From Candidatus Thalassarchaeaceae archaeon (GTDB taxonomy: Archaea; Thermoplasmatota; Poseidoniia; Poseidoniales; Thalassarchaeaceae), in NCBI GenBank assembly GCA_023700255.1, contig JAJPRD010000010.1:1-43462 (forward strand): a stretch of DNA of 43,462 nt, read 5' to 3'. The notes beneath the pieces were generated by a model, which searched no databases, had not been told where the DNA came from, and saw only the letters and a list, made by a program, of their open reading frames with translations. Position numbers and translations under genes: made by a program. Below, in pieces: positions 13,196 to 17,195 of this stretch. How positions within the stretch are numbered: position 1 is the first letter of the stretch; every line of letters starts with the position of its first letter.

Positions 13196-14251
13196 ATGCA
13201 AAAGCATCGACTAGAGGGGCTATCCTCATTTGTCAGAGATTTAGGGAGTGAATGTACCACCCTAATTATGCATAATAATGCCCTAATTGCAGGTTCAAAA
13301 GACGGGAAGATTGTGGCTTGGGATATTGATGATGGCCGGGAAAAATGGACATTACAAGTAGATGGCCCCATTTCAGATATTGCAATAAGTGATAGAATTT
13401 ATGTAACTGCATCGGCAGAGTTGCATGCGATAGAAATAGAACAAGGAACTTTAGAGTGGACAAAAAATATTGGAGGGTCTAGTGATCTTGTCGTATTGGA
13501 TAAAGATTCAATTTGGGTGACCTCATCGTTGTATGAACTTGATGTGGAAGACTATACCGAAACCACACTATTTCAGTTCAATAAAGATTCAAAAATAATT
13601 AAGTCAATTAATTTCGAAGAAAAACCCTGGTTTTTAATAATGCAAAAAAATGAGTTGATTTTAGGTGTGGGGAGGCCCAGATGCGGATATTTAGCGATAA
13701 ATAGCGAATATGAAATTAGGCATAAGAAAATTAAGGGGCAAAGTCCGATTACGCTTGGAATTGAAACATTATCTGGCTTCTTATTGGGGCATAGCAATGG
13801 ATCGATTACTGAAATTAATGATGACCAGGTAAATGTTATTCAATTTGAAAAATCGCCAATAACTGCAGTTATATCAAAAGAAAATAAGTGGTGTGTTGGA
13901 AACAGTCATGGAACTATTATGTCATCTAATGGTTGGAAAAAAGGATTTGTTGGTATAATTGATTGTTTACTAGATGTTGGGGATTTTATTTGGGCATCAT
14001 TATCTAATAGTGAAAACAATATATATCTACTAAATAGAAATGATGGAGAAATACAACATCAAATCATTCATGATACCAGGATTAGATTAATGAGCAATAC
14101 AGATGATAAGATTGCGGTATCAGACCAAAATGGAAAAGTAATGCTTTTTGAAGAAAAAATACTCTCTAGAAGGCTAGGCGAAATCAAAGAAGATTCGGAT
14201 GATCAGCAGAAAAGAGATTTGTTAAAAAAACGATTAAGAGCGCTAAGATGA
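13196..14251 (+). CDS. PQQ-like/WD40-like beta-propeller protein
   Basis: Repeats such as 'NALIAGSKDGKIVAWDIDDGREKWTLQVDGPISDIAISDRIYVTASAELHAIEIEQGTLEWTKNIGGSSDLV'. Confidence 0.75.
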   Translation: MQKHRLEGLSSFVRDLGSECTTLIMHNNALIAGSKDGKIVAWDIDDGREKWTLQVDGPISDIAISDRIYVTASAELHAIEIEQGTLEWTKNIGGSSDLVVLDKDSIWVTSSLYELDVEDYTETTLFQFNKDSKIIKSINFEEKPWFLIMQKNELILGVGRPRCGYLAINSEYEIRHKKIKGQSPITLGIETLSGFLLGHSNGSITEINDDQVNVIQFEKSPITAVISKENKWCVGNSHGTIMSSNGWKKGFVGIIDCLLDVGDFIWASLSNSENNIYLLNRNDGEIQHQIIHDTRIRLMSNTDDKIAVSDQNGKVMLFEEKILSRRLGEIKEDSDDQQKRDLLKKRLRALR

Positions 14252-14272
14252 CTTAAAAAATGCAGTGGAAAT

Positions 14273-14294
14273 AACCCCTGTTTAACCCCTGTTT
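14273..14294 (+). repeat. Perfect tandem 11-bp repeat (aacccctgttt)x2
   Basis: Read directly: aacccctgttt aacccctgttt. Confidence 0.97.
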
Positions 14295-14510
14295 CCAGTG
14301 GACTGCGGCCTTGTTGAGGAAAGGTTTAAGAACCGTGGCCGTCCCTGAGAACTTTGCTGCTTCGGTGAAGGAGTGTGGGCGCGTTTATTCGCGACCCGCG
14401 GGCCACAACAACCGAGCTCCGAAAAGGAGCAGTAAAACCGGAAATCGAAAGAGATCCGGGGAATAGTCAAAACGTCTGTGGACGTAAGACGACGGGAGAA
14501 CTGAGATGGG

Positions 14511-14535
14511 AAAAACTGGACGAAAGGAAGGGGAA
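14511..14535 (+). repeat. Direct repeat copy 1 'aaaaactggacgaaaggaaggggaa'
   Basis: 25/25 identical to 14691-14715, exact offset 180 bp. Confidence 0.97.
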
Positions 14536-14690
14536 AGAAATCACAGAGGAAGTATGGAAAACAAAACCGAACCGGCAACGGGGAAAACATAAACCGAAAT
14601 ACAAAACTATCCCGAAAAGGTACATGAGCGAAGAAAATGAACCAGAGATGGGACAAATTTGAGGCGCATATGTGAGGAAGTAAAGATGAA

Positions 14691-14715
14691 AAAAACTGGA
14701 CGAAAGGAAGGGGAA
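14691..14715 (+). repeat. Direct repeat copy 2 'aaaaactggacgaaaggaaggggaa'
   Basis: 25/25 identical to 14511-14535. Confidence 0.97.
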
Positions 14716-15018
14716 GAGAAACAAAACGGAAACACATTGAGAACAAGAGCGGGAAACCGTGGAGGATCAGTACTGAGGCGTGGAAAAAACTAGTGAGAGC
14801 TAGGGAAATAAGCGAACACGGGTTGAAAGAAGAGATTCTTAAAATTCGGAAAACGACAAAGAGAGAGCATGAAGTCTCAGAGTCATCTACCCCAGGCGAG
14901 TAGGGACCTTCGGGAACCTGCAGACTTGGGACCCTGCGGAGTTAGCAGAGGGTAATGATCCCCCAATGTTCAGAACCCACTGCTAGCTCCCACCTAATCG
15001 GTACTTCGGCTCTATTTT

Positions 15019-16623
15019 CTAATTCTTATTAGGCCCAATCATTTCTTCAGGTTTTACCCATTCATCAAATTGATGGTTGTCTAATAATTTTAGATCAAGT
15101 GCACTTTCTCTTAATGTCAAATTATTTTTATGAGCGTTTTTGGCAATTTTTGCAGCATTGTCGTAACCTATGTAAGGATTTAATGCTGTAACAAGCATTA
15201 ATGAGTTTTCTAAATGTTGAGAAATTTTCTCATGATTTGCCTCTAACCCCATAATACACTTTTCAGAAAAAGAGATACAGGTATCGGAAAGTATCCGAAT
15301 ACTATGAAGAAGATTATGTATCATCATTGGTTTGTAAACGTTCAATTCGAAATTACCTTGACTACCTCCTATTGAAATTGCTGTATTATTACCCATCACC
15401 TGGCAACAAACCATCGTCATTGCTTCTGCTTGCGTTGGATTTACCTTGCCCGGCATTATACTCGAACCAGGCTCATTTGCAGGTAGAGATAACTCTCCGA
15501 ATCCGCATCTAGGCCCGGAACCCATCCATCTCACATCATTTGCAATTTTCATCAAAGATGCAGATAGAGTATTCAACATTCCAGAAGTAGCAACTATAGC
15601 ATCATGAGCACCCAGTTGAGCGAATTTATTCTCTGCACTAACGAAATCTAAAGAAGTGTATGTTGCTATCTTTTCTGCTACTTTTTCGGCAAAATCAGGA
15701 TGTGTGTTGAGACCGGTGCCCACCGCAGTTCCCCCAAGAGCTAATTCAAGCAGATCTACTTGAGAGTTTTCTATACGTACGAGATCGGAGTCTAGCATTG
15801 AAACATATGCACTGAATTCCTGACCTAACGTCAAAGGCACGGCATCCATTAAATGCGTACGACCAATCTTAACTATATCGGAAAAATCCTTTGATTTCTG
15901 ATCTAAAGAGTTTCTTAGATTCATGATTGCAGGTATTAACCTGTGGCGGATTTCTTCGGCTGCTGCTATATGCATTGCAGTAGGAAATGTGTCATTACTT
16001 GATTGGGCCCTATTGACATGATCATTTGGATGGACTGGTGTTTTACTCCCTAGTTGACCGTTTGTGAGCTCTATAGCACGATTAGCAATTACTTCATTGG
16101 CATTCATATTAGTTTGTGTCCCTGAACCAGTTTGCCATACACGCAATGGGAAATGAGCATTTAGACTGCCTGAAATTACTTCTTCGCAAGCAGAAGAAAT
16201 TAATGCCCCTATCTTAGGATCTAATTCTTTTAATTCCACATTCGTTTCTGCTGCAGATTTTTTAAGAATTCCGAAGGCACGAATCATTGCATGCGGCATT
16301 GTATCCTTTCCGATATTGAAATTTATTAGTGAGCGTGCAGTTTGAGCACCGTAATAACGATCGGAGGGGACTTCTACCTCGCCCATTGTATCTTTCTCTA
16401 TCCTCATTGAGTCTTTTTGCCCACGTGCTTTTTTTGGCACGCCCTCGGGGGCGTATGGTTGAGAATTGCTATCTGAAGAAAGGGCTTTTTCAATCATTTT
16501 AGAGATTGTTGCGGAACGACCATCATTCTGTCCTTTGCCTACTTTTTTATCTAGTTTTTTCGCTAATTCTTCTGGTATACTTATGCTTAAAATTCGACGA
16601 TCACCCGCGCGATGTTTTGCCAT
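15019..16623 (-). CDS. fumC: Class II fumarate hydratase with N-terminal ribbon-helix-helix domain
   Basis: Fumarase part from about M102 of the ORF (16407): '[19 protein letters not shown]', '[24 protein letters not shown]', '[20 protein letters not shown]'. N-terminal '[40 protein letters not shown]' matches RHH/CopG pattern. Start chosen at ATG 16621-16623 ([10 protein letters not shown]). Confidence 0.9.
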
Positions 16624-16706
16624 GTAATACGCGGTTATTAACTTATTAATAAACTTAGAGTTTCGATTCGCAGCATGGCATTTCAAGTTTTCATAAAAAC
16701 AAAGGA

Positions 16707-17195
16707 TCAAATTCTTTTGACAGAAATAATCTGCATAGGTGTTTGAGGTTTGTCTCGGAAATCAGTATTTTGTAACTCTATTTCTTTAACTACATCCATT
16801 CCTTTTACAACTTCTCCGAAAACTGCATGATTTCCATTCAACCAAGGAGTAGCAACTGTAGTTAAGAAGAACTGTGAACCGCCTGTATTTTTCCCAGCAT
16901 TAGCCATGGAGAATAGGCCCGGTTTATCGTGTGCCTTTGCAAGTGCAGAAGCTTCGCAAGGAATTTGCCACCCTGGTCCTCCTGTTCCTGCTGCACGACT
17001 ATCTGGGTCCTTTGATTTAGGACAGCCGCCTTGAATCATGAAATCTTTTATTATTCGATGGAAATGAAGCCCATCATAATATCCCGAATCTACTAATTTT
17101 AAGAAATTACCAGTGGTTTCCGGGCAATCATTTGTGTAAAGTTCAATTTGGATTTCGCCTAAAGTTGTTGACATTTCTACGTAAGTCATACCCAT
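16707..17195 (-). CDS. Cyclophilin-type peptidyl-prolyl cis-trans isomerase
   Basis: '[32 protein letters not shown]', '[44 protein letters not shown]'. Confidence 0.95.

What the first reader, a model, noticed from the sequence alone, without database searches (positions are those of the whole stretch)
14252..15018. Unassigned large structured RNA candidate (about 0.7 kb) between the beta-propeller and fumarase genes
This is the one gap in the window that coding does not explain. It is 767 bp long; the next longest gap between genes is about 150 bp. Convergent genes bound it, so it is not simply a 5' leader. It has a TATA-like 'cttaaaaaatg' at its left edge and T-rich sequence at its right edge. 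The + strand is strongly purine-biased (I count 78-80% purine in two 60-nt lines) and about 55% G+C over 14281-14460 in an otherwise AT-rich window. I can pair many local helices by eye: a GCAGTGGAAA/TTTCC..ACTGC stem (14262-14306), CGGCC/GGCCG with inner GGTT-TAAG-AACC, GGGCGCG-tttatt-CGCGaCCC (14377-14397), GCTCC-GAAAA-GGAGC, CCGG-aa-ATC-GAAAGA-GAT-CCGG (14438-14459), ACGTC-TGTG-GACGT, a UUCG-capped stem with tandem purine mismatches (14901-14920), and an 11-bp helix closing a 31-nt loop near the 3' end. I could not find the conserved RNase P core (gAGGAAAGUCC / ACAGAA..CCGG), the SRP helix-8 motif or any rRNA signature. This could be a new archaeal RNA class or an extremely divergent known one.
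Basis: partly seen in the sequence, partly recalled or inferred. Interest (0 to 1): 0.85.

Follow-up and report, generated by a model that had tools for sequence, protein, structure and literature searches.

The report
New large archaeal structured noncoding RNA
Between two ordinary genes, a group of abundant, uncultured ocean archaea carries a separate gene for a large (about 650-letter) folded RNA that matches no catalogued RNA family, keeps its shape through compensating mutations across 14 genera, and has no known function.

Summary
The finding holds. Window 14252-15018 carries a single-copy noncoding RNA gene. It has an archaeal BRE/TATA box (14319-14330), a predicted start near 14350 and conserved sequence to about 14996, giving a transcript of about 647 nt. 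It lies between the same convergent beta-propeller and fumarase genes in all 11 genera of Candidatus Thalassarchaeaceae and in three genera of the sister family. No match was found elsewhere in the phylum. Neither the window nor eight homologous loci match any of 4227 Rfam families; RNase P and SRP RNAs are encoded elsewhere. The fold is under selection: 70 of 104 consensus pairs show compensatory changes, stacked covarying pairs number 24 against 0.67 in tree-preserving nulls (maximum 8), and the 3'-terminal helix has 31 different arm pairs that stay complementary. Function is unknown. I favour a structural scaffold, RNA-only or RNP, comparable to OLE/GOLLD/ROOL but not homologous to them. 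One earlier sighting is possible: Tan1, an abundant 229-nt RNA of the same lineage reported in 2016 (PMC5069720), whose sequence I could not check. Transcription was not measured here.

The parts
14262..14306 (+). Upstream palindromic element GCAGTGGAAAT..TTTCCAGTGGACTGC, a probable operator or activator site (DNA, not RNA)
   Evidence: TGGAAA..TTTCC element upstream of 69 of 75 homologues; the pattern occurs once in the whole held genome, here; absent from the RNase P and SRP upstream regions inspected
14319..14330 (+). BRE/TATA promoter GAAAGGTTTAAG
   Evidence: TTTA invariant in 23 of 23 with no gap up to the first hairpin; same 25-nt spacing in 70 of 75 homologues
14350..14996 (+). Predicted mature RNA, about 647 nt (start inferred from TATA spacing, end from the limit of conservation)
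   Evidence: Syntenic homologues in 14 genera; alignments A3 and the 61-sequence set; fold z = -3.24
14354..14375 (+). P1, 5'-terminal hairpin UUGCYGCUYC...GRAGNGGUG
   Evidence: Forms in 75 of 75 homologues, with C-G/U-A and U-A/C-G/U-G changes
14377..14397 (+). P2 hairpin GGGCGCG-loop-CGCGaCCC, followed by near-invariant CGCGGGCCACA
   Evidence: Compensatory changes at several pairs
14416..14430 (+). P3 hairpin
   Evidence: Compensatory changes, e.g. 97-107 in A1
14438..14459 (+). P4 hairpin with GAAA loop
   Evidence: Compensatory changes; stacked covarying pairs 91-112 and 92-111
14466..14490 (+). P5 hairpin with conserved CUGUGG loop
   Evidence: Stacked covarying pairs 119-144/120-143 and 126-137/127-136
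14493..14614 (+). Central domain 1, closed by long-range helix CGGGA (14493-14497) / UCCCG (14610-14614)
   Evidence: Compensatory pairs 172-383 to 176-379; stacked covariation 147-268/148-267
14504..14551 (+). First copy of the purine-rich repeat AACUGGACGAAAGGAAGGGG
   Evidence: 48-nt direct repeat, 81% identical to the second copy
14684..14731 (+). Second copy of the repeat, 180 nt downstream; amplified to six copies in L017
14619..14774 (+). Central domain 2, closed by GGUAC (14619-14623) / GUACU (14770-14774)
   Evidence: Pairs 388-566 to 392-562, standard-pair changes at several of the five
14889..14929 (+). UUCG-capped hairpin region of the 3' domain
   Evidence: Pairs 816-855 to 819-852 with CG/GC/AU/UG alternatives; stacked covariation 540-574/541-573
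14936..14992 (+). 3'-terminal element GCGGAG-[long helix and loop]-CUCCCA
   Evidence: GCGGAG and CUCCCA invariant in the 26 aligned sequences; helix has 31 distinct arm pairs among 75 homologues
13196..14251 (+). Upstream flanking gene: beta-propeller protein, 351 aa (context, not part of the RNA)
   Evidence: Pfam PQQ_2 E = 4e-10; conserved neighbour
15019..16710 (-). Downstream convergent gene: class II fumarase (context)
   Evidence: Pfam Lyase_1 E = 2e-112, FumaraseC_C; conserved neighbour

Best explanation
This is an independently transcribed, single-copy gene for a large multidomain structured noncoding RNA, characteristic of Candidatus Poseidoniales. RNA polymerase starts about 25 nt downstream of a conserved BRE/TATA box, under an upstream palindrome that a regulator probably reads. 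The transcript of about 647 nt folds into a 5' domain of four to five hairpins, two central domains closed by long-range helices, and a 3' domain sealed by the GCGGAG/CUCCCA element. I think it acts as a stable scaffold: the fixed ends and long-range helices hold a particle (RNA-only or RNP) whose middle arms can be lengthened, duplicated or rebuilt from UUCG hairpins without loss. Shown: the gene-like unit, promoter, synteny, conserved fold, lineage restriction. Inferred: transcription, exact ends, scaffold role, partners.
For: Same gap between the propeller and fumarase genes in 23 loci first examined, then in distant genera and the sister family. Promoter + hairpin model R3: 153 of 340 genomes of the class, 14 of 25 genera. 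Compensatory changes at 70 of 104 pairs; stacked covarying canonical pairs 24 vs null mean 0.67, maximum 8 in 60 tree-preserving nulls. 3'-terminal helix: 31 arm pairs, all complementary. Fixed TATA spacing in 70 of 75. No Rfam match. The middle varies in length and content: 207-nt tandem duplication in L054, six 63-nt repeats in L017, 6-9 cUUCGg motifs in sister-family copies where about 0.13-0.16 are expected. That pattern suits a scaffold better than an antisense guide, whose target-pairing segments should be the most conserved.
Against: No transcript evidence was available here. No partner protein or target was identified. Several sister-family genera lack a detectable copy, so it is not universal in the order. 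Judged one pair at a time, only 2 column pairs pass E <= 0.05 in my strict null; the significance lies in stacked pairs. The scaffold role rests on architecture alone.
Confidence: 0.6

Rival explanations
1. A trans-acting regulatory RNA: conserved unpaired segments, or the purine-rich repeats, base-pair with other RNAs or sequester an RNA-binding protein, in the manner of a sponge.
For: Long purine-rich stretches with repeated AACUGGACGMAAGGAAGGGG, amplified to six copies in L017; conserved loop sequences such as CUGUGG and CGCGGGCCACA; a unique upstream palindrome suggests regulated synthesis.
Against: The purine-rich repeats are absent from sister-family copies, which carry UUCG hairpins there instead. 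The most conserved parts are paired ends and long-range helices. GA-flanked hairpin modules are not enriched over dinucleotide shuffles.
Confidence: 0.22
2. A catalytic RNA or the RNA subunit of a processing enzyme (a ribozyme or an RNase-P-like holoenzyme not yet described).
For: Size, multidomain fold and near-invariant short sequences are typical of catalytic RNAs.
Against: RNase P RNA is present elsewhere. No compact invariant core comparable with known ribozymes was found, and the gene is absent from several sister genera.
Confidence: 0.08
3. A cis element: a 3' UTR of the beta-propeller mRNA or an antisense regulator of the convergent fumarase gene.
For: It is always immediately downstream of the propeller gene and usually faces the fumarase gene.
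Against: It has its own promoter at fixed spacing. Conservation stops before the fumarase stop codon. The neighbouring genes persist without it in sister genera, where the gap holds another sequence or no gap at all.
Confidence: 0.06
4. An extremely divergent known RNA (RNase P, SRP, tmRNA, OLE, GOLLD, ROOL) or a mobile/viral RNA.
For: Size comparable with OLE/ROOL; one partial copy of the 5' part at a second locus in one genome (L133).
Against: No Rfam match up to E = 10 in the window or E = 5 in homologous loci. RNase P and SRP are elsewhere. No credible viral copy: 3'-motif hits score at most 15.4 bits, and the single 5'-motif contig has no model match. One fixed genomic site.
Confidence: 0.02

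Closest known systems
Tan1 (Thalassoarchaea ncRNA 1), PMC5069720
   Same: An unknown, very abundant noncoding RNA of marine group II archaea, found by RNA-Seq in the Red Sea, with a predicted complex secondary structure and homologues only in Candidatus Thalassoarchaea at 75-79% identity.
   Different: Reported as 229 nt against about 647 nt here. Its sequence and locus are only in a figure and supplements that could not be read, so identity with part of this RNA is neither shown nor excluded.
OLE, GOLLD and ROOL RNAs (large ornate bacterial RNAs), PMC12286853
   Same: Large (OLE about 600 nt, PMC12054373), elaborate, conserved noncoding RNAs of unknown biochemical function; those three form homo-oligomeric complexes.
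   Different: Bacterial; no Rfam match of this RNA to any family. Oligomer formation is untested here.
Archaeal RNase P RNA (RF00373)
   Same: Independent archaeal structured RNA gene.
   Different: The genome's RNase P RNA is at C33:7-300 with 233 bits; no match in this window.
Archaeal SRP RNA (RF01857)
   Same: Independent archaeal structured RNA gene.
   Different: SRP RNA is at other loci in 51 of 60 relatives; no match in this window. Not found in the window's own 81%-complete assembly.

Membership tests
Archaeal RNase P RNA (RF00373) | Scores above the family covariance-model cut-off | tested here: not met
   No match in the window at gathering or to E = 10 in 14000-15200; the genome's own copy is on contig C33
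Archaeal SRP RNA (RF01857) | Scores above the family covariance-model cut-off | tested here: not met
   No match in the window; relatives carry SRP RNA elsewhere
OLE / GOLLD / ROOL RNAs | Sequence and structure match to the Rfam family model | tested here: not met
   No match to any of 4227 Rfam families in the window (E <= 10) or eight further homologous loci (E <= 5); that Rfam holds these families is from my own knowledge
OLE / GOLLD / ROOL RNAs | Forms a homo-oligomeric RNA complex | not testable with these tools
   Needs mass photometry or cryo-EM
Tan1 | Encoded by Candidatus Thalassoarchaea (marine group II) | tested here: met
Tan1 | Transcript of 229 nt | tested here: inconclusive
   Conserved span is about 647 nt; a partial or processed transcript is possible
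Tan1 | Sequence identity to the published RNA | not testable with these tools
   Sequence given only in figure 5 and supplements, not held
Structured noncoding RNA (any class) | Covariation beyond phylogeny | tested here: met
   24 stacked covarying canonical pairs vs 0.67 mean and 8 maximum in 60 tree-preserving nulls
Structured noncoding RNA (any class) | No conserved reading frame | tested here: met
   Longest open frames differ in strand, place and length between close relatives
Structured noncoding RNA (any class) | A discrete transcript is made | not testable with these tools
   No expression data held

The most novel reading that the evidence does not exclude
A wholly unreported class of large archaeal RNA (Tan1 being a different molecule) that assembles into an RNA-only or RNA-protein particle in one of the most abundant archaeal groups of the ocean: an archaeal counterpart of the large ornate bacterial RNAs.
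Probability: 0.3. Interest if true: 0.92.

Novelty: categorically new. Interest (0 to 1): 0.8.

Why it matters
To my knowledge, RNase P, SRP and ribosomal RNAs are the only large structured RNAs commonly recognised in archaea. A 500-950-nt RNA gene kept at one site through a whole family, and in part of its sister family, points to an unrecognised RNA machine in marine group II archaea, which have no cultured model. The defined promoter, ends, helices and search models make it directly testable in existing metatranscriptomes and, as an in-vitro transcript, by probing and cryo-EM. It may also explain the abundant unknown RNA Tan1.

Tried and rejected
Coding gene: open frames are not conserved. 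Known RNA: no Rfam hit at relaxed thresholds. Viral carriage: three scans of viral contigs; the 35 3'-motif hits are chance by covariance model and the one 5'-motif contig has no match. Shared promoter element with SRP/RNase P genes: not seen, and the palindrome pattern is unique in the genome. Repeated GA-flanked hairpin (kink-turn-like) modules: not enriched over dinucleotide shuffles. Second copies: most are contig-end overlaps or strain mixtures at the same site; one real partial copy (L133). RHH-fumarase as regulator of the RNA promoter: not supported, because genus g17 has the RNA with a fumarase lacking that domain, and other genera have a long fumarase without the RNA. Strict pair-by-pair covariation: only two pairs reach E <= 0.05. 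A 3'-element alignment for pair counting was misaligned by MAFFT between genera, so arms were compared sequence by sequence instead.

Full report
What was checked. The 767-bp gap at 14252-15018 lies between convergent genes for a beta-propeller protein and a class II fumarase. Neither the whole window at curated cut-offs nor 14000-15200 up to E = 10 matches any of 4227 Rfam families. The strand folds better than all 20 dinucleotide-preserving shuffles, z = -3.24.

Where else it occurs. DNA search of 60 relatives found the segment in 24, all of the same family. In the 23 loci whose gap could be delimited, the two flanking genes are the same and the gap is 704-1039 nt. A 3'-end pattern searched in 85,462 species gave 54 hits, all titled marine group II / Poseidoniales / Thalassarchaea or simply 'Euryarchaeota archaeon'. 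Taxonomy: Thermoplasmatota, Ca. Poseidoniia, Ca. Poseidoniales.

Deeper relatives. Fumarase-anchored loci in other genera showed gaps of similar size with the same ends. A covariance model of promoter plus first hairpin (R3) matched 153 of 340 genomes of the class, in 14 of 25 genera: all 11 genera of the window's family and g15, g17, g22 of the sister family. At phylum level (390 genomes, 155 genera) matches again came only from these two families. An independent exact pattern for the 3' element found copies in the same three sister-family genera only, with zero hits for the reversed control pattern. In the seven sister-family loci fetched, representing these three genera, the RNA again follows the propeller gene and in most faces the fumarase gene directly. 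Sister genera without a hit have another sequence in the gap (L047, L048) or no gap (L053). In g22 extra genes lie between RNA and fumarase.

Anatomy. GAAAGGTTTAAG at 14319-14330 matches an archaeal BRE/TATA box. Its TTTA is invariant in 23 sequences with no indel before the first hairpin, and the 25-nt spacing is identical in 70 of 75 homologues. From general knowledge of archaeal TATA-to-start distance, transcription should begin near 14350, directly before the 5' hairpin UUGCYGCUYC. Upstream lies a TGGAAA..TTTCC element in 69 of 75 homologues, found once in the held genome. The 3' end of conservation is GCUCCCACCU at 14986-14995. Between these ends lie hairpins P1-P5, central domain 1 (14493-14614), central domain 2 (14619-14774) and a 3' domain ending in GCGGAG-helix-CUCCCA.

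Is the fold selected? RNAalifold on 23 sequences predicts 104 pairs, 70 of them with changes on both sides that keep the pair. That prediction uses the same alignment, so I made a stricter test on 61 sequences of mean 68% identity. Nulls were simulated on the tree with the observed number of changes per column. Pair by pair, only two pairs pass E <= 0.05. Stacked covarying canonical pairs, the signature of helices, number 24 against a null mean of 0.67 and maximum of 8 in 60 nulls; at stricter score thresholds of 25 and 35 the count is 11 against zero. Across genera the 3'-terminal helix has 31 different arm pairs that all remain complementary (a single mismatch allowed), and P1 forms in 75 of 75. 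This null is my own script, not R-scape.

Not coding. The longest open frames differ in strand, position and length among near relatives. The apparent 154-aa minus-strand frame follows from purine-rich sequence lacking stop codons on the opposite strand.

Evolution of the middle. The ends are rigid and the middle is plastic. L017 carries six copies of a 63-nt purine-rich unit related to the two copies in the window; L054 carries a 207-nt tandem duplication at 95% identity. Sister-family copies have 6-9 CUUCGG tetraloop motifs where 0.13-0.16 are expected from composition.

Mechanism. Shown: a conserved gene-like unit with promoter, fold and fixed genomic site. Inferred: transcription, ends and role. 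Rigid ends and long-range closing helices with variable-length arms suggest a scaffold, RNA-only or with proteins. A regulatory or sponge role is the main rival. The propeller gene is not a required partner, since it persists without the RNA. The 0.6 given to the best explanation covers gene and mechanism together: I hold the structured-RNA gene at about 0.97 and the scaffold role at about 0.6 given that.

Relation to the literature. A Red Sea metatranscriptome paper (PMC5069720) reported RNase P RNA, SRP RNA and one unknown abundant 229-nt RNA, Tan1, in marine group II, with homologues only in Ca. Thalassoarchaea at 75-79% identity. Tan1 may be a piece of this RNA; I put that at about 0.4. 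No other report was found in the searches made. Large ornate bacterial RNAs (PMC12286853) are the nearest functional analogy, not relatives.

Novelty. I mark it categorically new because it belongs to no catalogued RNA family and has no detectable homologue outside one archaeal order. If Tan1 proves identical, the class was glimpsed earlier as a fragment, and the full gene, structure and distribution would be what is new.

Noticed in passing
window 15019-16710 (-): The fumarase has an N-terminal extension resembling a ribbon-helix-helix DNA-binding domain (Pfam RHH_1, E = 0.005, below the curated cut-off). The extension appears in many but not all relatives, suggesting a DNA-binding fumarase fusion.
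   Followed up: partly
L133:3453-3900 (G130 contig C32): A second, partial copy in one genome: the same type of promoter and first two hairpins, then unrelated sequence ending in a strong GC hairpin, next to a moaA-like gene; R1 scores 35.4 bits.
   Followed up: partly
L054:3111-3539: 207-nt tandem duplication at 95% identity inside the RNA gene of genus g8.
   Followed up: partly
L046, 3' half of the gap: The 3' part of the RNA, including the terminal GCGGAG..CUCCCA element, occurs twice in tandem in a genus g3 genome, with a run of N between; it may be an assembly effect.
   Followed up: no
L047 and L048, propeller-fumarase gap: Two sister-family genera lacking the RNA have other sequence in the same gap that looks like a membrane-protein gene by eye, suggesting replacement or loss.
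   Followed up: no
window 14262-14306: The TGGAAA..TTTCC palindromic element upstream of the RNA is found once in the held genome and is conserved across most homologues; its binding factor is unknown.
   Followed up: partly
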